Positions 29,062-42,700 of a stretch of 64,000 nt of DNA are shown one piece after another (position 1 is the first letter of the stretch; every line of letters starts with the position of its first letter). The notes beneath the pieces are model-generated. The model had not been told where the DNA came from. It searched no databases and was given only the letters and a program-made list of their open reading frames with translations. This DNA is from Leucosporidium creatinivorum. Taxonomy: Eukaryota > Basidiomycota > Microbotryomycetes > Leucosporidiales > Leucosporidiaceae. The position numbers and the translations under genes are program-made. Location: assembly GCA_001600635.1 (NCBI GenBank), contig BCKL01000018.1, positions 179,974 through 243,973 on the forward strand. The letters run 5' to 3'.

Positions 29062-29706
29062 ATGGCGACCATCGACCTCACCGGCTCTTCCTCGCCTCCT
29101 CGTGCACCTGCTCAGCAGCAGCTTCGCCTCAACAACAGCGGACCAGCTCGCGGTGCGGCTCCAGCTCAGTCGTCTAAAGCCAAGCTGCTCGACCGTATTG
29201 ACCAAGCAGACACGGAGGAGCTTCGTCGTATCCTGGCTACCTGTGTACAGCGCAGCTCGACCGCCGAGAAGCTCGCCAGCGCCATGCTCAAGCCCCAGCA
29301 AGGGGGCCGCGCGGGAGGACAAGCTCGACAAGCCAGGCGAGCTCGTGCCGAGAGCTGGGACATCTGCATGCACTGCGATCAGCCTTTCGATGAGGATGAG
29401 AACGACGAGGACTCGTGTGCTCAGCATCCCGGTGAGCCTCGCCGAGCCAGCCCCGTTGACGTCCGTTTGCTGACTCTGCTTGGCCTTTGCCTCATTCGCT
29501 CGACTACAGGAGAACTCAAATGGGACAACTTGAACGATCAATGGGCGGATTGGGACGAAGACTGCCACGGGATCATGGATTCGGAAGAGCAACGGCAGCA
29601 GTTCCCCGAGAACTTTGCCTACAGCTGCTGTGATGAAGATGGGACGGCCGAACCTTGCGAGGAGTGTCCACATGACGCCAGACCGGTGAAGAAGGCCCGC
29701 CGCTAG
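29062..29706 (+). CDS. CHORD-like Cys/His protein, copy a
   Basis: First of four related genes. Two exons (29062-29431, 29510-29706) with a phase-1 intron inside the HPG motif. About 190 residues. Low-complexity head (MATIDLTGSSSPP), then a helical domain LLDRIDQADTEELRRILATC-VQRSSTAEKLASAML, then a Cys/His module: CMHCDQPFDEDEND, CAQHPGELKW, DWDEDCHG, a second half NFAYSCCDEDG, PCEECPH, and a basic tail KKARR. The spacing C-x2-C, C-x2-H-PG, CC, C-x2-C-x-H recalls the CHORD zinc-binding domain; I infer zinc binding from this pattern. Similar Cys/His proteins of unknown function occur across fungi. The start at 29062 is the first ATG and aligns with copy d (MPTVIDLIESSP). Confidence 0.85.
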   Translation: MATIDLTGSSSPPRAPAQQQLRLNNSGPARGAAPAQSSKAKLLDRIDQADTEELRRILATCVQRSSTAEKLASAMLKPQQGGRAGGQARQARRARAESWDICMHCDQPFDEDENDEDSCAQHPGEPRRASPVDVRLLTLLGLCLIRSTTGELKWDNLNDQWADWDEDCHGIMDSEEQRQQFPENFAYSCCDEDGTAEPCEECPHDARPVKKARR

Positions 29707-30393
29707 CCTAAAGTGGGCTGGAAGCAATCACGAGGCTGCTATCTGAGCTCGGCGCTGACCTCGGTCGTCTTTCAGAGCCTCAACATTCAACCTGGGTACG
29801 CCGTGCGACCTGGAGATGAAATCTGATATCACTTGGACCCTTCGCTGACTCCCTTGTACTCCCAGACTTCCTCTTGGCGCTGGCGCCAGGCTCACCCCTT
29901 CCCCCTCCTTTCGCTTTCCCACTGCCGGCTCACTTTATCAACACGACCGGAGCTCCGCAACCCGCACTCATTCATCAGTCATTACTGAGGCCGCCAGCGG
30001 CGATCAGCATCGAGCAAGCCGTTGCCGTTTTTGCATCTGTCGGCGAAGGAGCTTGAGGGAGGCCGAGAAGCTGCTAATGCACTCTGAGGTTGACTTGCGG
30101 CTCAGGGGTAGCCCCAGGCTCCCAAAGCTGGTGTCTGTCGCGTTCCAAGAAGCTCACAAAGGCCAAGGGAGCCTGCCGAGGAAAGCAGGGGCATCTCGGA
30201 GAAGAGCATTCATCGCCGAAGAGGCTGCAAGCGACGAAGCCGTTCGCCGAGCACCAAGCCTGTAGCTTGAGATTGTGGTCCGCGAGTCAAGCTGCACTCG
30301 AATCGCGACCAGGCTCGTGTGGTCGAGCGAATCTCGCTTCATCCGACGCGTCGGTTTCTCTTACCTCGTCTCGCTGCTCTCACTCGCCTCGCC
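29707..30393. other. Intergenic between CHORD-like copies a and b
   Basis: 687 bases. A short frame at 29874-30056 carries a Pro-rich stretch and ISIEQAVAVFASV, faintly like the helical domain of the family, but too weak to call a relic. No other feature seen. Confidence 0.35.
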
Positions 30394-31062
30394 ATGGATC
30401 TAGCACAGTACTCTTTGCACACTGCTACTGTACACAAACCAATCGAGCCCCTCGACTGGTCTCCCTCTCCCTTCAACGCCTGGTCGCATCCACTTCCCAC
30501 TCCTCCTCCTGCGCCATCAGCTCCTCGTCCAGCCTCTCGCTCACCACTGGAGGAAGCCATCGACCGAGCAGATATCGACATGCTTAAGCGAGCTCTGCTC
30601 ACTTGCATCACGCAGAGCGCAAAGGCCGAACGGCTCAGCACGGCCCTCTTCCTCGACGCGCCTGAGGAAGCTGGCGGGAGGAAACGTCGACGGGACGCTT
30701 CAGAGGAGGAGCTGGTCAGCTGCAGACAGTGTGACAAGATCTATGATACGACTGAGGAGGTCGAGGACGAGCTCCCTTGCGCCCATCATCCTGGTGAGCT
30801 CGCTCGGCGTCTCTCTGGAGGTTAAGCAGGACTCTCTCGCTGACCTAGTGAGACTTGCTACAGATGAGCTCGAGATTGAGCTGGAATCTGATGCATGGAA
30901 CGACTGGGAAGAGGTCCACTGACCGAAGGACACTGAGGAGAATCGGATGGCGTATCCTGAGGGATTCTACTACACGTGCTGCGACAAGATCGGTAGCGCA
31001 CCTCCGTGCACACCTTGTGCACATGAAGCTCAACCGAAGAAGCACGCTCGCTCGGCATTAAT
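30394..31062 (+). pseudogene. CHORD-like Cys/His protein, copy b, interrupted by TGA
   Basis: Same two-domain plan and same intron position (30794-30863) as copy a. Exon 1: MDLAQYSLHTATVHKP, Pro-rich linker, helical domain LEEAIDRADIDMLKRALLTC-ITQSAKAERLSTALF, then CRQCDKIYDTTEEVED and CAHHP. Exon 2 reads DELEIELESDAWNDWEEVH and meets TGA at 30920-30922. The frame beyond the stop is still family-like: ENRMAYPEGFYYTCCDKIG, PPCTPCAH, PKKHARS. So either the gene is a recent pseudogene, a truncated protein lacking the second Cys/His half is made, or the TGA is read through. An intron with the same internal motif as that after copy c follows at about 31062. As written, the product is about 150 residues. 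Confidence 0.7.
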
Positions 31063-31734
31063 CGGTGAGCAGCGCCGCCGAGAGAGCCCTTCGGCGATGA
31101 GCTGACCCGTCGGTTGGGCACTCAGGTTCATCGGCTGTGGCTCCATATTGTGAGGCAAGATAACGCTCCTTTTTTTGGAGAGAAGCTACTGACCGCTCTC
31201 TGCTTCAGTCGCTCTTCCCCGTCGACCTACCTCTCTCACCAGTCCCGTTTTCAGCGGCTTCGGCGGCGCACGAGCCTTGCCAAGCTCTCTGCGGGCGTAC
31301 ATCAAGCCTTGAACTATCCAGTATTCGAAACCACTTCAAGCTGGAATGATTACGATGCACAATGCCCGAGGGAAGCGTAGCGAATCGCCGAGTGGTGATC
31401 GAAGGCCTCTGGGACTCCTCCAAGAGCACGTGTCGGCGCCAGAGGTCCTAGCCTTCCAAGCGACTCTTTCGACTTCCAGTACTCGCAATATCGGCGTGGT
31501 ATGGCCCTGCGCGAAGAGTCAGCGGCCCAGCTCGGCGCAGAGCTCGGCAGCGTTTAATGCAACCAGCACAGGACTACGAGCAGTCTTTCTGAGCAGCATC
31601 GTGCAATATGAGCGATCAGCCTCCGACTGGAGTTGTAGCCGAATCGACGGCCGACTGTTTTGGTGCACGTGAGCGACCAGCGCGGCGCGTTTGTCTCCCT
31701 TCGACATCTCCTCGCTATCCTCGCTCGCTACGGC
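31063..31734. other. Intergenic between CHORD-like copies b and c
   Basis: About 670 bases. Contains the putative last intron of copy b (about 31063-31125, ending gcactcag) and otherwise only short unsupported frames. Confidence 0.35.
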
Positions 31735-32412
31735 ATGTCGTTCAGCAACCTCGAGCAGTACTGGCCGCCATCTTCACCCTTCCCTGACCCCTCCGACCCC
31801 GCCATCTGGGCAAAAGGCATCGCTCTACTTCAGAACTCGCCGGCCCTTCCTCCGCCAGCCTTCGTCGCTGCCCTCACACTGGACCAAGCCATCGACAACG
31901 CCGACATCTTGCTACTCAGACGCACACTGCGCAACTGCATCAGTCAAAGCGACACGGCTGAACGAATCGCCGAGAAGCTGCTGCTGGAAACATCGGAACG
32001 CGTCGACCGAGAGCGCTCGCTGGAGGACAGGGAGGAGAATTTTGCCGTCTGCAAGCACTGCGATACAATGTTCGACATCAACGACAACCCCGTCGAAACG
32101 CCCCACTGCAAGTGTCACCCTGGTAAGCTCGGCGACCGCCGTTCGCCCCTTGTCTTCGCCCGAGACTGACTGACCTGGCATCGCGCGCCATGGACAGAAT
32201 CACCGAGCATGAATGATGACGCTGAAATCTGGGAATATTACGAGCCCTACTGGCGTGGCGACTACCCCTCCGACACGCCCGAGAACCGAGAGGCCTACCC
32301 TGAGGGCTTCTGGCACGAGTGCTGTGAGGGGAAGATGGGTGCTCCTCCGTGTACACCTTGCCCACACAAACCCAGGTCTAGGACGTCGAAGAAGAAGGCT
32401 CGCAATGCGTAG
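31735..32412 (+). CDS. CHORD-like Cys/His protein, copy c
   Basis: Intact copy. Two exons with the family's phase-1 intron after CKCHP (donor gtaagc at about 32123, acceptor at 32198). Start MSFSNLEQYWPPSSPFP; helical domain LDQAIDNADILLLRRTLRNC-ISQSDTAERIAEKLLL; Cys/His module CKHCDTMFDINDNPVE, CKCHP, then ENREAYPEGFWHECCEGKMG, PPCTPCPHKP and the basic tail TSKKKARNA. About 200 residues. Copies b and c share the YPEGF.(Y/H).CC...G.PPC core, which a and d keep less well (QQFPENFAYSCC; HPEAYTFPCC), so b and c look like the most recent duplicates. Downstream of its stop is an intron-like segment with the same internal motif as copy b's. Confidence 0.85.
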
Positions 32413-32978
32413 AACAGGTGAGTCGCGAGTCCGACCGTCCTTCGGCGATGAGTTGACTCTTGCTTCGCACTCGCAGAACACCTTTGACCAGCTCCATGCT
32501 GTAAGCAGAGAGCTCTTGGTCCCATACCTATCTATGCTGACCTTCCATGCGCCTACAGGCAACGCTCCTCGGTCGGCGTCAGCTCGGTCGGCTTCCTCCC
32601 CATCTCTCCCGGGCTCCCCTCGTGCTCACCTCCATATTGATTGTCCTTATAGCGCCGTGCACTCTTGCAACAAGCGAAGCAGGTCTTCTCATCATAACCC
32701 TCCTTCGCCTGAGTATCCTCGCAAGCAGCGAGCCTAGCTCGGCGTTCGCCACCGTCAGCGCTGAGGCGCCGCTGCTCTTTGTCCGCTCGCTTTGCCTGCC
32801 CTCTGCTCTCGTCCACGGTCCACCATAAAGCCCGGAGAGAACGAACGGGTTGCCAATGCAGAAAACGGAAGGAGAGAGGGGTGGAGTAGGGGGTAAAACG
32901 GAGGTGTAGAAGCGAAATCCCTCTTTTGGATATCACGGAGACTCGACTGGAGACGCGGACTGACTACTAGTAAGCAGA
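32413..32978. other. Convergent intergenic region, copy c / HSP90
   Basis: 566 bases between two 3' ends. A spliced 3' UTR of copy c may lie at about 32418-32480 (donor gtgagt, branch gttgac, acceptor cgcag). No gene recognised. Confidence 0.4.
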
Positions 32979-35900
32979 TTAATCGACCTCCTCCATGGAC
33001 GAGGCCGCAGCGGGCTCAAGGGGAGGGGGAGCATCATCCTCCTCGGCGATCTCGGCGGGCTCGTCGAGGTCGAGACTGAGTCCGAGCTGTTGAAAGATGA
33101 GCGACGAGGTCAGCGAAAGTTCGAGACGAGGCTTAGAAGCGACTCCGAGCTTACGGAGATCATGTTGTGGATGCGGCCGGCAAAGTCGACGGGGGTGTCG
33201 AGGGTGAAGCCCGAGGTGAGGAGGGCGGTCTCGTAGAGAAGGACGGTGAGGTCGCGGACAGTCTTGTCGGCGGCATCTTCCTGGACCTTGCGCTTAAGCT
33301 CCTTCATGATAGCGTTGTGGGGGTTAATCTCGAGGGTCTTCTTCGACTGCATGTCTGTGGGGCGAGAGAGAGAGTCAGCGATCGGCCGAGCGGAGAGATG
33401 CGCAAGCTAGTGGCGCACAGGAAGACATCGACGAGTCACGGAGAGCCTGAGCCTTCATGATGCGCTCCATGTTGGAGGACCATCCGAACTGTCCGGTGAC
33501 GAGAACGCAGGGCGAGTCGGCGATCCTGTTGGAGATGCTGACCTTCTCGACCTTGTCGCCGAGAATGTCCTTGATGGTGCGGGTGAGGTCCTCGAACTCG
33601 GTGGTCTCCTTCTCGCGCTCGGCCTTCTCCTCGTCGGTCTCCTCGAGCTCGAGTCCGTCCTTGGAAACGCAGACGAGCTTCTTCTCCTCGAACTCCTTGA
33701 GCTGGGTGGTGGCGTACTCGTCTGTGGCAGGGTGAGGGGTCAGCACGTCATCACTGAAGCGAAGAACAGCGGCGAGAACTTACCGATGGGGTCGACGAGG
33801 AGGAGGACCTCGAATCCCTTCTTCTTGAAGATCTCGAGGAAGGGCGAGTCGCGGACCTGGGAGAGCGATTCTCCGGTGAGGTAGTAGATGTTCTTCTGCT
33901 GCTCGGGCATGCGGGTGATGTAGTCCTTGAGCGAAGTCATCTCCTCTCCCGACTTGGTCGAGTGGAAGCGGAGGAACTCGGCGAGCTTGGAGCGGTTCTG
34001 GGCGTCCTCGTGGATACCGAGCTTGATGTTCTTTCCGAAGGCCTCGTAGAACTTGGCGAAGCTGTATCGAAAGGCTTGTCAGTGAGGTGCTCGTAGTGCT
34101 CGCCGAGAGAGACCCAAAACTCACTTCTCCTTGTCCTCGGCGATGTCGGAGAGCATCTCCATGGTCTTCTTGACGAGGTTCTTGCGGATGACCTTGAGAA
34201 TCTTGTTCTGCTGGAGAGTCTCACGCGAAATGTTGAGGGGAAGGTCCTCCGAGTCGACGATTCCCTTGACGAAGTTGAGGTACTCGGGGATGAGGTCCTC
34301 GCAGTCGTCCATGATGAACACGCGGCGAACGTAGAGCTTGATGTTGTTGCGCTTCTTCTTGGACTCGAAAAGGTCGAAGGGGGCACTGTTGGAGCGGAGA
34401 GACGAGATCAGCGAGGGCTCGGCGATGCCTAAGAGCTCGAAACTCACCGCTTGGGGATGAAGAGGATAGCCTTGAACTCGAGCTGTCCCTCAACCGAGAA
34501 GTGCTTGACGGCAAGGTGGTCCTCCCAGTCGTTGGTGAGCGACTTGTAGAAGGCTCCGTACTCCTCGCCGGTGATGTCGGTGGGGTTGCGAGTCCAGAGG
34601 GGCTTAGTCTTGTTGAGCTCGACCTGCTCGGTGACGTTCTCCTTGACCTTCTTGGTCTTCTTGGGCTTCTCATCATCATCGACCTCCTCGATCTTGGGCT
34701 GGTCGTCCTCGGTCTGTTGCGCGAGCGAGAGTCGAGGTCAGCGCCGAATCCTAAACTCGCTCGAATCTCCGACGACTCACCTTCTCCTCCTCGGCGTCCT
34801 CATCTTCGACCTCCTTCTCGACCTCCTTGGTGGTGACGAGCTGGATGGGGTAGGAGATGAACTCGGAGTGCTTCTTGACGATGTCCTTGATCTTCTTCTC
34901 CTCGAGGTACTCGAGCTGGTCCTCCTTGAGGTGGAGGGTCATCGAGGTACCGCGGCCGAGGGAGGGGTTGACGGTGTCGGGGGTGATGGTGAAGGTTCCA
35001 CCGGCGGCAGACTCCCAGATGTACTGCTCGTCGTCGTTGTGCTTGGTGACGACGCTGACCTTGTCGGCGACGAGGTAAGCGGAGTAGACTGTTTCGAAAG
35101 AGAGATCAGCGTTTGTTCGGTCCTCTGTGGCTCCATTGTACTCACATCCGACTCCGAACTGTCCAATCATGCTGAGAACGAGCGAGCGCGAGAGGGCGGA
35201 GGGTCAGCGTTTCCTCTCGGCGGTTCAGCGACAGCACGTCTACTCACGAGATGTCAGCTCCGGAGGAGAGAGCCTCCATGAAGGCCTTGGTTCCGGACTT
35301 GGCGATTGTTCCAAGGTTGTTGACGAGGTCGGCCTTGGTCACTGCGCGAGGAGGAAGCGAGAGGCGGAGCCGTCAGCCTCTGTACGAGCTGCAGCGCCGA
35401 GCTTTGCAAGTCTTCCCGTCGCTAGACCTGCAAGCTGAACTACTCACTTCCGATTCCGGAATCGCGGATGGTGAGGGTCTTGTTGGCGACATCGGGGGTG
35501 ATGCGGATGAAGAGCTCCTTCTCCGAGTCGAGCTGGGTAGGGTCGGTGAGAGCCGAGTAGCGGACCTTGTCGAGGGCATCGGAACAGTTGGAGATGAGCT
35601 CTCGGAGGAAGATCTGTAAGAGAGAGCGAGCAAAGCGTTAGCGTCCGACCTCCTTCGGCTGGCTTTCTTTCCTTGTCGCTGAGGATGTGTGCGGAGCTGC
35701 TGCCTAGTCGCCAGCAGCTTTAAAAAGTGACTTGAGTTCCGACTGACCTCCTTGTTCGAGTAGAAGGTGTCTGTGAGGAGAGGTAGCGAGGTTAGCACCG
35801 CTCCGCTGGGAGAAGCTGAAAGAACCTCAGCGCTGGCGACTCACTGATGATCAGGTCCAGGAGCTGGGCTGTAGTGAGGGAGCAAAGGGTGAGTATGTAC

Positions 35901-36053
35901 GTCTTACTGGTGTAGCTCTGTAGGCTGTAAGCTCACTGATCTCGGCCTGGAAGCCGACTGTTGAGAGAGAACGAGGTGGGTGGTCAGCGCGCGGTCTCTT
36001 GATGAGCTGCAGAGCAGGCGTTACTCACAGGTCTCGGGCTGAGGGGCAGACAT
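32979..36053 (-). CDS. HSP90: Cytosolic HSP90 chaperone
   Basis: Complete HSP90. The N-terminal GHKL ATPase domain shows [26 protein letters not shown] and [18 protein letters not shown]; an acidic linker ([13 protein letters not shown] ... [16 protein letters not shown]) follows; the middle domain has [42 protein letters not shown] (with [17 protein letters not shown]); the C-terminal domain ends MEEVD, the cytosolic TPR-docking signal. About 700 residues. The first four exons are micro-exons of 25, 21, 24 and 23 nt (36029-36053, 35937-35957, 35845-35868, 35748-35770) encoding only residues 1-31; these add up to an exact frame. About ten more introns follow. The gene is placed inside the cluster of CHORD-like Cys/His genes. 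Confidence 0.96.
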
Positions 36054-36806
36054 GTTGTAAGAAAGCTGCAGGGGAGCAAGCGCGGTGGGTGGAGAGACAG
36101 TGGCGATTTGGAGAGGGAGAGCGGAAGTCGAGAAAGAGGTGGAACAAGCTCGTTAGCAGCTGTACTGAGTTCTGTAGGAGGGGCTACAGGTGCAGCTATA
36201 GCTTGCTACAGCACTCACGGTGTGGGGTGGTGAGCGAGGTGTAAGACTCGGGTGAGAAGAAAGGCAAGTTGCGAGCGCGCTTTCCTCGACCCTCCACCTC
36301 TCGGATCTCGAACCTTCCTTGACCTCAGTCACGTCGGGTGGAGACCCTTTGCATCCTCTACAAGTAAAGAAAGGTACCATCGACTTTCCCCGTGTACTTT
36401 CTACGCTTCGAATTCGGAATGCGAGCACCTGCCCCTTTTCGCTCACCTCTGCCCGTTCGGAGGGGATTTATGTTGCAGAGAACGATCCAATGAAGCTGAT
36501 CGGATCGGTACGAAGCTCAGAGTATCTGAGCTATATGTACATCGAGTCAAGCTAGCTCAAGGCCCTCGGACTGAGCGAGGCAAGCTTGCGCCGAGAGGCA
36601 TACGAGGCGAGACGATGAGGTGCAGGTCCTGTGAGGTGTAAAAGGAATGCTCTGGAGGTCGAGAGTATAAGCGATGAGATGTCGACAGGTTGCAAAAGTT
36701 CTGGCTGCTCACAACTTCATCGACGAGACCTGCGAAGCCAAAGCCGAGGTCAGCTCTCGTGCGCGCAAGAGGTCAAGCAACGCGCTCCGGACTCACCTCA
36801 GCCCGC
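36054..36806. other. HSP90 upstream region
   Basis: 753 bases from the HSP90 start to the end of copy d. A partial heat-shock element lies at 36310-36317 (gaaccttc, a correctly spaced GAA/TTC pair with imperfect third units on both sides), about 260 bases upstream of the ATG. I found no perfect three-unit element. A 5' UTR intron is possible. No coding feature seen. Confidence 0.4.
36310..36317. promoter_or_regulatory. HSP90: Candidate partial heat-shock element
   Basis: GAAccTTC, two inverted HSF pentamer cores in correct spacing, upstream of HSP90. The flanking third units are off by one base or mismatched, so this is weak. Confidence 0.25.
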
Positions 36807-37449
36807 TCAGAGCTTCCTCCTCTTCTTCTTGTCCAGCGCCTTGTGCGGTACCTTCGTACATGGCTCCCAGAACGACTCGCCACAGCAGGGGAAGGTGTAG
36901 GCCTCGGGGTGCTGCTCTCGCATCGATTCTGTATCGCCGTCACAGGCAAACTCCCATCGGAACCAGATGGACATCTCCTCCATCGGTTCGGGCTCGTCTG
37001 CAGGTCAACGAGACGTGTCAGCGCACTCTGCGAAGTCCGAAGCTTCGGCGCCGAAGCTCACCGCTATGAGCCCAGCACTGAGGCTCCTCCGTCCCATTAT
37101 CATCCAGATCGAACGCCTGATCACATTGCTGGCAAAACGCCCAATTGCCCTCCAATCTCTCCTCCCTCCTCCTTTTGTTATTGGCGGTGAAGACGGCCTT
37201 GGTGAGCTTCTCTGCGACCTCGCTGAACTCAATGCACGATAGGAGAGCCTTCCGGAGCAAGTCAACATCCGCTACGTTGATGGCTTCTTGTAGAGCTGAT
37301 CCTTGGGGCGCTGCTCGGGGTGCTGGAAGAGCTGGCGCGGCGCGAGCGAGTGCAGCTGCTCGAGGTCCTGGGCCGGCGACGGAGAGGCGGTCCTGCTGGC
37401 GAGCGGGAGCAAGAGGGGACGATTCGATGAGGTCGATTACGGTCGGCAT
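36807..37449 (-). CDS. CHORD-like Cys/His protein, copy d
   Basis: Fourth copy, inverted relative to a-c and just upstream of HSP90 in the same orientation. Start MPTVIDLIESSPLAP at 37449, nearly the same N terminus as copy a. Helical domain LQEAINVADVDLLRKALLSC-IEFSEVAEKLTKAVF; Cys/His module CQQCDQAFDLDDNG, CWAHS, then after the family intron DEPEPMEEMSIWFRWEFACD, HPEAYTFPCCGESF and PCTKVPH; tail DKKKRKL. In place of C-x2-C-x-H the last motif is C-x3-x-H (PCTKVPH), so one presumed zinc ligand is lost, and HPG has become HSD. The intron begins with a perfect 18-base palindrome at 37041-37058. About 190 residues. Confidence 0.83.
37041..37058. repeat. Perfect 18-bp palindrome at a 5' splice site
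   Basis: agcttcggcgccgaagct reads the same on both strands and begins within the donor of copy d's intron (gtgagcttcgg on minus), so the pre-mRNA could fold a hairpin there. Confidence 0.85.
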
Positions 37450-39752: not shown

Positions 39753-42700
39753 TCAATAGTATCCTCCGTTTCCGCCGCCCTGCTGTCCTCCGTAGCCAGG
39801 GTTGTATCCCTGGTTCTGCTGCTGTCCGCCCCATTGAGGAGGAGGTCCAGGCGGCTGCTGGAAGCCTCCTTGGAAGCCGCCTTGCTGAGGAGGAGGCCCG
39901 GGAGGCTGGGAGAAGCCGCCCTCGAATCCCCCGCCGCCGTGGTGCTGACCGTGCTGAGGACCTCCAAATCCACCCTGCTGCTGATCGTATCCCGAGTTGA
40001 AACCTCCGCCGAATCCTCCAGAAGGGCCCTGGTCGTAGCTCTGCTGCTGACCGCCGAAGCCGCCGGGTCCTTGATCAAACTGCTGCGACTGCTGGTGGTG
40101 CTGAGGCTGTTGGTGGTGCTGGGGCTGCTGGTGGTGAGGAGCGCCGGGGAAGCCTCCACTGCTGCTGTTGTCGTCGCCGCGGTACGAGGTCTGCTGCGAG
40201 TAGTTGTCGTTGTCGGACTGGAGGAAGGACGAAGTCGATTGAGGGCCTGCGAAGCGAAGGGGTCAGCATGCGAAGGACTGCAGAGCAGCTTGGTACTCAC
40301 CCTGAGGTCCCTCGCGGCCGACGTAGTGCTGCGCTGAGCCGTAGGCGTTCTGCACCTGATGAGCGGCGTTGAAGACCGACGAGGCTCCGGGGACGTGCTG
40401 CTGAGCGAACGACGAGACCTTCTCGGGCGAGAGGATCGAGTTGTACTCTGTAGACTCGAGCATAGGTCAGCTCGCTCTCACGCTCAATCTCCCACCAGGC
40501 TCACGTCCTCCACAGCCGTGGCCGATCTGGTCCTTCTCGTGACCCTTCCTCTTGTTCTTGCCGTTGCGAACGCTGTCCTTGGTGAGGGCGTTGAGGATGT
40601 AGCGCTTGTCCTCGACCGTCTGTCCCTCGATCCAGCTCTTGAGGTAGGCGCCCATCTCGCGCTGGACGCTCGAGTTGTCGTTGTAAAAGTTGGGGTGGTG
40701 GAAGCACTCGAGGACCTCGTGGGCGACATTGTTGGCGTTGATCGAGGTGTCCTCCCAAGCCTTGACGATAGCCTTGACCGTGTGCGAGACGACGATCGTA
40801 GCGACTTTGCCTGCGAGAGAGGAGGACGGGTCAGCGGGATCTTCAATACCGAGCTTGGGCGGCGGAGACTGACCAGCGGGCTCGTTCAAGATGAGGACGA
40901 AGCTGTAGGAGAGTCGGTCAGCTATGTCCGAATGTAGAAGCCATTTGCAGAACGTACTGATCCTTGGAGAGGAAACTGTGAGTGGGGTCGGACGAGTGAG
41001 GGTTGTTGAAGACCTCCTGCGCAGCGATAAGAGGCGAGGGTAAGCTACAGCTCGCTGAAAATGATCGAGTATGAACGTACGTATTGGTCGTTGTTGGAAA
41101 TGACAGCCGAAGACCCCTCCTGAAGCGCGCCGGTAGCTTGAGTCACTGTGAGTTCGAGAGCGACGGTCAGCGACCATCTCGGCGAAAGCAATATAGTGAG
41201 ACGACGAAGCTGATCGGCTTGAGCAACGGCTCAATAGTGGTAAACACGAAGCGGTTGATAGAGTCGGTGAGCTTCTCGACGAGGCTGGAGAGTCCGGGGA
41301 TCTTGCTGATGCCGACCTCGATGCCCTTGACGACGTTATCGCGGAAGGTGAGGACTTGCCAGAGGGCGGCGTGAAGCTCTTGAGGTGACATCTCGCTGGG
41401 GTTGCCGGAAGCAGCGCGCGAGCGAATGCCTTCGACGTCCTGCATCTCCCGCGAGAGGTTGCCGCCCGTCTCGCCGGGGAGTTGGAAGAGCATGTCGCGG
41501 ATCGAGTCAGTGGCGCCGCGGTCGGTCGAGCGAGCTCCGTCCATGGCCTTGGCGAGGTCGGAAACGGAAGCCTCCGAGATGTGGTCGGAAGCCTCGCCGA
41601 GCAGCTGCGTCGGAGAGTTACGTCAGTCTCCATCTCGTTCTCGACAGCTTGCGTTGCAGCATACAGAATGAATGAAGTCGCTACCCCCGAAGGTACCGGT
41701 GACGAGAGGAGGGCACGGTCCAGCGGGGCTCTGGACGACGCAGGCATCGCCGACATGGCAGAAGACGTTGCTGTAGCCGAGGCGACGGAGGGACAGTTCG
41801 CACCAGTTGGAGTGGGCAGAGAAGTCTTCTACAGTGTGGAGGAGAGTTCCGAGGAGTCGGTAGGCCTCGTACAGATCGTTCTCGGATCCGCCGTTGCGAG
41901 CGCGGCGGCCGGCGTCGATGCACTGGTGAATGCGCTCGCGAACGAGACGGGCAGAGGTATCCCAGGTTCCGTTCTCGTTGGCGATGTAGTTCTGAGGTAA
42001 GATGCAAGGGATCAGTAAGTGCTTTCGAGCGATTAAGCCAGCCAACCCACCTTCATTCCGGTAGCGGGGTCAATCTCGAGCTCCCTAGGGTCGACAGGAG
42101 GGCGGAGACGAGGGTCGTACTTGCGAGCATCTCCTCCGGGCTGGTCGGAAGCGTATCCTTTGGGGTTGTCGATGTGCTCAGTGCAGAGGTAAACGCCGAG
42201 GCGCTCGTCGGTGACCTGCGCGAGGCGGGAGTTAGCTTGAGGTCCGATGAGCCTCAGAAAAGTGCGATTGCACCTCGAATTCTCCAGTGGCGTAACCGTG
42301 GGCGAGAAAACCCAGAGCCATGCAGAGGTTGATGACTGTGAGAAAGCGACCAGGGTCAGCTCGGTCGGCTTGACGGCCTACGCGCTGGGCATTGAGACTC
42401 ACTGGTCTGCTTGGTGCTGCGGATGAAAGAAACGTCAGCTCGAGACTCGTTCTGTATAGTCAATCACTAGCTTACAGCTTGCTCAAGCCAGCAATGTCCA
42501 TCGCTTGACCTGAGAGCGAACGCCGAGTTAGCTCCTCTGCTCCAGCTTCTGCCTCTCGTCCTCAACTGCCACCGAAGAGCTTCGATAGCTCTACTTACTG
42601 TAGTCGCGAAGCCAGTTTCCAAAGTAGACGCGCTTGACTGCTCGGCGGTGAGGGTCAGCGCTCCGGCTCCACATCGCCATCAGCTCGGCATAGTACGCAC

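What the first reader, a model, noticed from the sequence alone, without database searches (positions are those of the whole stretch)
29062..37449. Four CHORD-like Cys/His genes surround the HSP90 gene
Copies a, b, c (plus) and d (minus) lie within 8.4 kb and enclose HSP90. Their Cys/His pattern (C-x2-C, C-x2-H-PG, CC, C-x2-C-x-H) resembles the CHORD domain. Known CHORD proteins (Rar1, CHORDC1/Chp1) are HSP90 co-chaperones, so a local expansion of CHORD-like genes around HSP90 could be a co-evolving chaperone module. The gene cluster is seen directly; the CHORD relation and the functional link are inference.
Basis: partly seen in the sequence, partly recalled or inferred. Interest (0 to 1): 0.85.

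Follow-up and report, generated by a model that had tools for sequence, protein, structure and literature searches.

The report
CHORD-like zinc gene cluster beside HSP90
A fungal genome carries a small cluster of old, diverged gene copies for a zinc-binding protein that looks like a distant cousin of CHORD, a domain known from HSP90 helper proteins, but the parts that grip HSP90 are missing, so sitting next to the HSP90 gene is probably coincidence.

Summary
The cluster is real. Four paralogues (a, b, c plus; d minus) flank HSP90 at the stated coordinates. A fifth copy (e) lies 37 kb from a, outside the window. Searches of the assembly found convincing zinc-domain matches nowhere else. Copies b and e are broken.

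The CHORD relation is supported: all five copies have counterparts, in order, to the eight zinc ligands of Rar1 CHORDII. A ten-sequence family profile ranks CHORD-containing protein-1 first in PDB (E=0.00068). hhalign gives 96.4%, and 0 of 400 column shuffles reach its score. No member passes Pfam's CHORD cut-off.

The HSP90 link is not supported. The PxFHD/E loop and the FxxF segment that contact Hsp90 are missing in 5 of 5 copies, and an ordinary two-CHORD gene lies on another contig.

Relatives include proteins of two Agaricomycetes. Best reading: small, probably nuclear zinc adaptors with a CHORD-derived scaffold that lost, or never had, HSP90 binding. Structure models were too poor to confirm the fold; synteny and expression were untestable.

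The parts
29062..29706 (+). copy a: exons 29062-29431 and 29510-29706; 188 aa; IDLT motif, helical module, CHORD-like zinc domain with all 8 ligand positions, KKARR tail
   Evidence: gene model from splice sites shared with the other copies; genome search; match of the Pfam CHORD model at E=1.08, chance level by itself
30394..31104 (+). copy b: exons 30394-30793 and 30864-~31104 (3' end uncertain, a possible intron donor at 31065); in-frame TGA at 30920-30922; all 8 ligand positions still readable
   Evidence: stop also reported
31735..32412 (+). copy c: exons 31735-32122 and 32198-32412; 200 aa; all 8 ligand positions
32979..36053 (-). HSP90 (cytosolic type by its C-terminal MEEVD), many exons (not counted), tail-to-tail with c and downstream of d
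   Evidence: Pfam PF00183 on two open frames; translation shows start MSAPQPE and end MEEVD
36807..37449 (-). copy d: exons 37449-37062 and 36997-36807; 192 aa; all 8 ligand positions; KKKRRKL tail
29365..29673 (+). CHORD-like zinc domain of copy a, first cysteine to last histidine (C-x2-C-x13-C-x2-H-x40-CC-x8-C-x4-H), interrupted by the intron 29432-29509

Best explanation
The genes are an old local array of a basidiomycete family of small proteins: an N-terminal IDLT motif of the SUMO-interacting type (in a, d, e and the foreign relatives), a short helical module, one CHORD-type zinc domain and, in most, a basic stretch. Shown: the array, its confinement (as far as the searches reach) to one 45.7-kb stretch of one contig, eight conserved Cys/His positions, profile similarity to CHORD, absence of the Hsp90-contact loop and segment, and relatives in two Agaricomycetes. 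Inferred: the domain binds two zinc ions in the CHORD manner (C, C, C and the last H for one; H, C, C, C for the other). The acidic stretch in place of the Hsp90 loop, and the helical module, bind other partners. The proteins act as nuclear adaptors that dock on SUMO-modified complexes through IDLT. HSP90 lies inside the array because the family duplicated locally around an unrelated neighbour; copies diverge and decay (b and e broken).
For: The eight ligands of Rar1 CHORDII (C159, C164, C178, H218; H181, C196, C197, C213; passages of PMC2935968) have counterparts in a-e. PDB searches: profile A2 puts CHORD-containing protein-1 first at E=0.00068; profile A1 first at 0.018; copy a alone puts two CHORDs first at 0.21 and 0.3; P0001 puts a CHORD first at 0.43. 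hhalign: 96.4%, score 49.1 (95.6% with the untrimmed profile); 0 of 200 full and 0 of 200 Cys/His-fixed shuffles reach it (maxima 20.2 and 23.6), reversed profile 8.3. Pfam CHORD matches below cut-off in four of five foreign relatives and one of five copies. The PxFHD/E loop is absent and the CC..C loop is 7-9 residues instead of 15-18 in 5 of 5. An ordinary two-CHORD gene lies at C1:741.6-742.4 kb. IDLT-type start in a, d, e and P0001-P0005, not in b and c. VIDLT is the SIM of PIAS1 (passages of PMC4907222 and PMC3901395). Convincing zinc-domain matches only on C18.
Against: AlphaFold models are poor (mean pLDDT 63.9 and 63.4), so the fold is unproven. No member passes the Pfam CHORD cut-off, and several unrelated Pfam models score as well or better below theirs (HEAT_2 0.002 and DUF7093 0.018 in P0002; Kazal_C6 0.024 in P0004; DeaD_dimer 0.0044 in a; Alphavirus E3 0.018 in one copy). 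In the genome scan the CHORD model also gave sub-cut-off matches in 2 of 14 control genomes, so copy a's E=1.08 there means little. In PDB, unrelated chains score between the two CHORDs (0.015 and 0.14, against 0.34 for Rar1). The CHORD profile held only four sequences. SIM and nuclear location rest on short motifs, and b and c lack IDLT. No expression, interaction or synteny data. The organism was not identified.
Confidence: 0.6

Rival explanations
1. The cluster is a co-evolving HSP90 co-chaperone module: the CHORD-like proteins bind HSP90, and physical linkage reflects shared function or regulation.
For: CHORD relation; c and d directly flank HSP90; copies a and b and the five foreign relatives keep a histidine (DE-x-V/C-HG in a and the relatives) that might stand in for the nucleotide-touching His188.
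Against: The Hsp90-contact loop and FxxF segment are absent in 5 of 5 copies, and the extra histidine is lost in c, d and e. One near heat-shock element upstream of HSP90, none upstream of a-d (weak). An ordinary two-CHORD gene exists elsewhere. Of eight other open frames scanned, five gave Pfam matches (DAO oxidoreductase, Het-C, BCD1, SART-1, BCAS3), none of them chaperone families. Copy e lies 37 kb from a.
Confidence: 0.07
2. The zinc domain is not CHORD-derived. It is an independent zinc ribbon plus a CC-C-H cluster, and the likeness to CHORD is convergence on a Cys/His pattern.
For: Different spacing (C-x2-C instead of C-x4-C; 38-42 instead of 14 residues between H and CC). The low-confidence structure model matches zinc-ribbon and rubredoxin-like chains weakly. 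Below the Pfam cut-off, with unrelated models scoring as well.
Against: Order and number of all eight ligands agree. Shuffles that keep the Cys/His columns in place reach at most 23.6 against 49.1. CHORD-containing protein-1 comes first of 177,635 PDB sequences. Non-ligand residues agree in part too (F-D after C-x2-C, H-P-G, aromatic-x-CC).
Confidence: 0.18
3. The family descends from the CHORD domain of the Rex3/REXO1 exonuclease, having lost the nuclease, and works in RNA processing.
For: Rex3 has a helical KIX domain followed by a single CHORD, as here in order (passages of PMC12129344).
Against: No nuclease domain in any copy. The helical module spans about 40-45 residues, about half a KIX domain (KIX length recalled). 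No Rex3 with a CHORD-like stretch was found in this genome to compare, but that search was weak.
Confidence: 0.12

Closest known systems
CHORD domain (PF04968) of Rar1, CHORDC1/Chp1 and melusin
   Same: Eight ligand positions in the same order; C-x12-15-C-x2-H(-P-G in a, e and most relatives); W/Y/F-x-CC in most; C-x4-H (C-x3-H in e); profile match to CHORD-containing protein-1
   Different: C-x2-C instead of C-x4-C; 38-42 residues instead of 14 between H and CC; CC-x7-9-C instead of CC-x15-18-C; Hsp90-contact loop and FxxF segment missing; a single domain per copy; below the Pfam cut-off
Rex3/REXO1 CHORD (PMC12129344, passages)
   Same: Single CHORD-type domain after a helical module
   Different: No DEDDh nuclease; helical module shorter than KIX (KIX length recalled)
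Uncharacterised Agaricomycete proteins PENSPDRAFT_689669 (Peniophora, P0002) and C0995_008010 (Termitomyces, P0005), with unnamed P0001, P0003 and P0004
   Same: Same architecture: (V/I)IDLT start, helical module, same zinc domain; insertions right after the H-P-G or H-R-G of P0001, P0003 and P0004 look like the same intron read through (inference)
   Different: They keep the histidine of DE-x-(V/C)HGPMD, which c, d and e have lost; Termitomyces carries two units in one predicted protein; their position relative to HSP90 is unknown
Btk-type zinc finger (PF00779)
   Same: Weak Pfam match to the CC...C half of P0003 (E=0.31) and to one copy (E=0.7); the title of a 2018 paper in the reference list of PMC12129344 links Btk fingers to CHORD (paper not held)
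   Different: Only half of the domain; far below cut-off

Membership tests
CHORD domain | Eight zinc ligands in the order C, C, C, H, C, C, C, H | tested here: met
   positions present in 5 of 5 copies, P0002 and P0004 and in P0001 and P0003 by alignment; P0005's gene model lacks the last His; zinc binding itself untested
CHORD domain | Canonical spacing (C-x4-C, H-x14-CC, CC-x15-18-C in the three CHORDs compared) | tested here: not met
   C-x2-C, H-x38-42-CC, CC-x7-9-C in 5 of 5
CHORD domain | Score above Pfam PF04968 cut-off (24.6 bits) | tested here: not met
   best 15.6 bits, P0003; copy a 15.0 bits in the genome scan
CHORD domain | Profile similarity beyond Cys/His content | tested here: met
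   0 of 400 shuffles reach the score; CHORD-containing protein-1 first in PDB, E=0.00068
CHORD domain | CHORD fold | tested here: inconclusive
   models of mean pLDDT 63-64; only weak matches
CHORD-type HSP90 co-chaperone | Hsp90 contact residues (PxFHD/E loop; FxxF segment between CC and C) | tested here: not met
   absent in 5 of 5 copies, present in the genome's own CHORD1, in 2yrt and in Rar1 (contacts from passages of PMC2935968)
CHORD-type HSP90 co-chaperone | Physical binding to HSP90; co-expression | not testable with these tools
   needs experiment
Rex3/REXO1 | C-terminal DEDDh nuclease in the same protein | tested here: not met
   no RNase_T match in the copies at E up to 10
SUMO-interacting protein | Functional SIM | not testable with these tools
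   IDLT-type motif present in a, d, e and P0001-P0005, absent in b and c; binding untested

The most novel reading that the evidence does not exclude
The family is a CHORD lineage that rebuilt its Hsp90 interface. The long acidic insert with its DE-x-(V/C)-HG motif replaces the PxFHD loop, the array around HSP90 is a linked set of client- or compartment-specific (nuclear, SUMO-directed) HSP90 adaptors, and the linkage is kept by selection.
Probability: 0.06. Interest if true: 0.75.

Novelty: new variant of a known kind. Interest (0 to 1): 0.36.

Why it matters
It adds a fungal family, without a Pfam match above cut-off and called hypothetical where a source names it, to the likely relatives of the CHORD domain. 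It would separate two properties usually taken together: the two-zinc scaffold, whose ligands are kept, and the Hsp90-binding surface, which is absent. That would make it a natural test of which parts of a CHORD are needed for Hsp90 binding. It also shows that a tempting neighbourhood inference (CHORD-like genes around HSP90) is probably a coincidence.

Tried and rejected
Structure prediction: two jobs (P0002-led and copy-a-led alignments) gave mean pLDDT about 64. Foldseek and VIA returned only weak matches (zinc-ribbon, rubredoxin-like, PHD, ribosomal and other chains) and listed no CHORD chain. I draw nothing from that absence.

Heat-shock elements: no perfect three-unit site and no four-unit site with up to 2 mismatches in the window (shuffle means 0.25 and 2.05). 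With one mismatch, 9 three-unit sites in the window against 7.7 in shuffles, one upstream of HSP90 and none upstream of a-d. Weak.

Rex3 origin: PF15870 gave nothing, and its controls did not ring either. Three RNase_T loci show no CHORD pattern. Not decided.

Cut8 (nuclear proteasome tether) as the helical module: one match, E=0.07, in P0005 only. Noted, not claimed. HEAT_2 and DeaD_dimer matches to the helical part are also below cut-off.

Protein searches: copy a alone, 612 candidates, none at E up to 10; profile A1 found P0001, with only the best 7995 candidates scored; P0001's zinc part found P0002-P0005. NCBIfam on four proteins gave nothing above cut-off. A scan of viral contigs found no relative.

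Literature, by listing (titles and abstract starts): CHORD domain/HSP90/fungi, CHORD/Btk/zinc finger/fungal, CHORD-containing/Hsp90/basidiomycete, CHORD/zinc/hypothetical proteins/Agaricomycetes (no paper) and CHORD domain/Rhodotorula (no paper). No listed paper was recognisably about this family. A term search of a fungal Hsp90 network review (PMC8599792) finds no 'CHORD' in its main text. A bacterial promoter scan is irrelevant to a fungus. The organism was not identified; 'Sporidiobolales' was not checked. A dN/dS test was planned but not run.
Full report
What is there. The window is contig C18:179974-243973 of a 27.7-Mb, 63-contig assembly. Copies a, b, c (plus) and d (minus) are modelled as two-exon genes at the given coordinates, with HSP90 between c and d on the minus strand. 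The intron falls at the same place in all: one base into the codon after C-x2-H-P (H-S in d). Because the donor begins with G|GTGAG or G|GTAAG, reading through it shows 'HPG' or 'HSG' where the spliced b, c and d have HPD, HPE and HSD. Copy b carries an in-frame TGA at 30920-30922. A fifth copy, e, lies at C18:171744-172376, about 8 kb left of the window and 37 kb from a, with a frame break in its helical part. Searches of the assembly with a, c, e and two foreign relatives (P0001, P0004) give convincing zinc-domain matches only at these five places. Matches on other contigs are weak (best E=0.0216 on C5) and lie in the N-terminal or helical part, or in P0001's linker up to the first cysteines. 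Such searches are exon by exon and give lower bounds. The copies are 26-40% identical pairwise. In an eight-row tree, rooted at the midpoint for drawing only, b, c and d are split from a, e and three foreign relatives (95/94); branches are long and e's place is unsure.

What family. No Pfam model is matched above cut-off by the five copies or the five foreign relatives, and no NCBIfam model by the four proteins scanned. Copy a alone found no homologue. The alignment search found P0001, and P0001 found P0002 (Peniophora), P0003, P0004 and P0005 (Termitomyces, two units in one predicted protein). All five start with an (I/V)IDLT motif; so do a (TIDLT), d (VIDLI) and e (IIDLT), while b and c do not. 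VIDLT is the SUMO-interacting motif of PIAS1 (passages of PMC4907222 and PMC3901395). A helical module follows (three helices in both models; it holds the best-predicted ten-residue blocks), then the zinc domain. In a, b, c, d and P0004 there is a basic stretch near the end, and in P0005 one in its second half. That the window's own organism is a basidiomycete is inference from these relatives.

CHORD test. Passages of PMC2935968 give the zinc ligands of Rar1 CHORDII: C159, C164, C178 and H218 for one zinc; H181, C196, C197 and C213 for the other. Numbering the 2xcm stretch from 159 puts each of the 20 residues checked at its named place. The family has counterparts for all eight in 5 of 5 copies: C-x2-C-x13-15-C-x2-H-x38-42-CC-x7-9-C-x3-4-H, against C-x4-C-x13-C-x2-H-x14-CC-x15-18-C-x4-H in the three CHORDs compared. 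The ten-sequence profile ranks CHORD-containing protein-1 (2yrt) first in PDB at E=0.00068; an unrelated metal regulator is second and third (0.015, 0.14) and Rar1 fourth at 0.34. hhalign against four CHORD sequences gives 96.4% and score 49.1, and in global mode the alignment spans both halves. Of 200 column shuffles and 200 that keep the Cys/His columns fixed, none reaches it (maxima 20.2 and 23.6). Pfam CHORD appears below its cut-off in four of the five foreign relatives and one of five copies. In the genome its only matches at E up to 10 are the true two-CHORD gene and copy a (E=1.08), but 2 of 14 control genomes also gave sub-cut-off matches, so that match alone means little. Against: no score passes the curated cut-off; unrelated Pfam models score as well or better below theirs (HEAT_2 0.002, DeaD_dimer 0.0044, DUF7093 0.018, Alphavirus E3 0.018, Kazal_C6 0.024); the spacing differs; and the structure models are too poor to show the fold. 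I therefore call it CHORD-related, not a CHORD.

HSP90 test. Rar1 contacts Hsp90 and its ADP with A185, F187, H188, D189, R190, R192, W194, E203, F204, D205, F207 and M208. The F-H-D/E loop is absent and the F-x2-F segment is missing in 5 of 5 copies, while both are present in the genome's own CHORD1, in 2yrt and in Rar1. Only the aromatic two residues before CC survives, as W in e, Y in a and b, F in d (H in c). A histidine in a different place is kept in the five relatives, a and b but lost in c, d and e. Upstream of HSP90 there is one near heat-shock element, and upstream of a-d none; the count in the whole window (9) is at shuffle level (7.7). Of eight other open frames in the window scanned, five gave Pfam matches and none is a chaperone family; not every gene of the window was annotated.

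Conclusion. The most likely reading is an old, locally duplicated fungal family of small, probably nuclear zinc adaptors with a CHORD-derived scaffold, with HSP90 as a bystander. SUMO docking and nuclear location are inference from motifs.

Noticed in passing
window 30920-30922: In-frame TGA in copy b with the frame intact on both sides: young pseudogene or sequence error.
   Followed up: partly
G000 C18:171744-172376 (L014): Fifth family copy outside the window, with a single frame break in the helical part.
   Followed up: partly
window 31065-31125 and 32418-32476: Copies b and c share a further intron-like stretch (GTGAG...CAG, both with CCTTCGGCGATGAG inside) at or after the end of the coding frame; e may have one too (seen by eye).
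   Followed up: no
G000 C1:741651-742360 (L022): The genome's ordinary two-CHORD gene has introns one to three codons after each HPG/HAG, in phases 1 and 0: near the array's intron position but not the same.
   Followed up: partly
window 40467-41828: Open frame matching the end of Het-C, a heterokaryon incompatibility protein family.
   Followed up: no
P0005 (Termitomyces): Two family units in one predicted protein, so tandem copies may exist in mushrooms as well.
   Followed up: no
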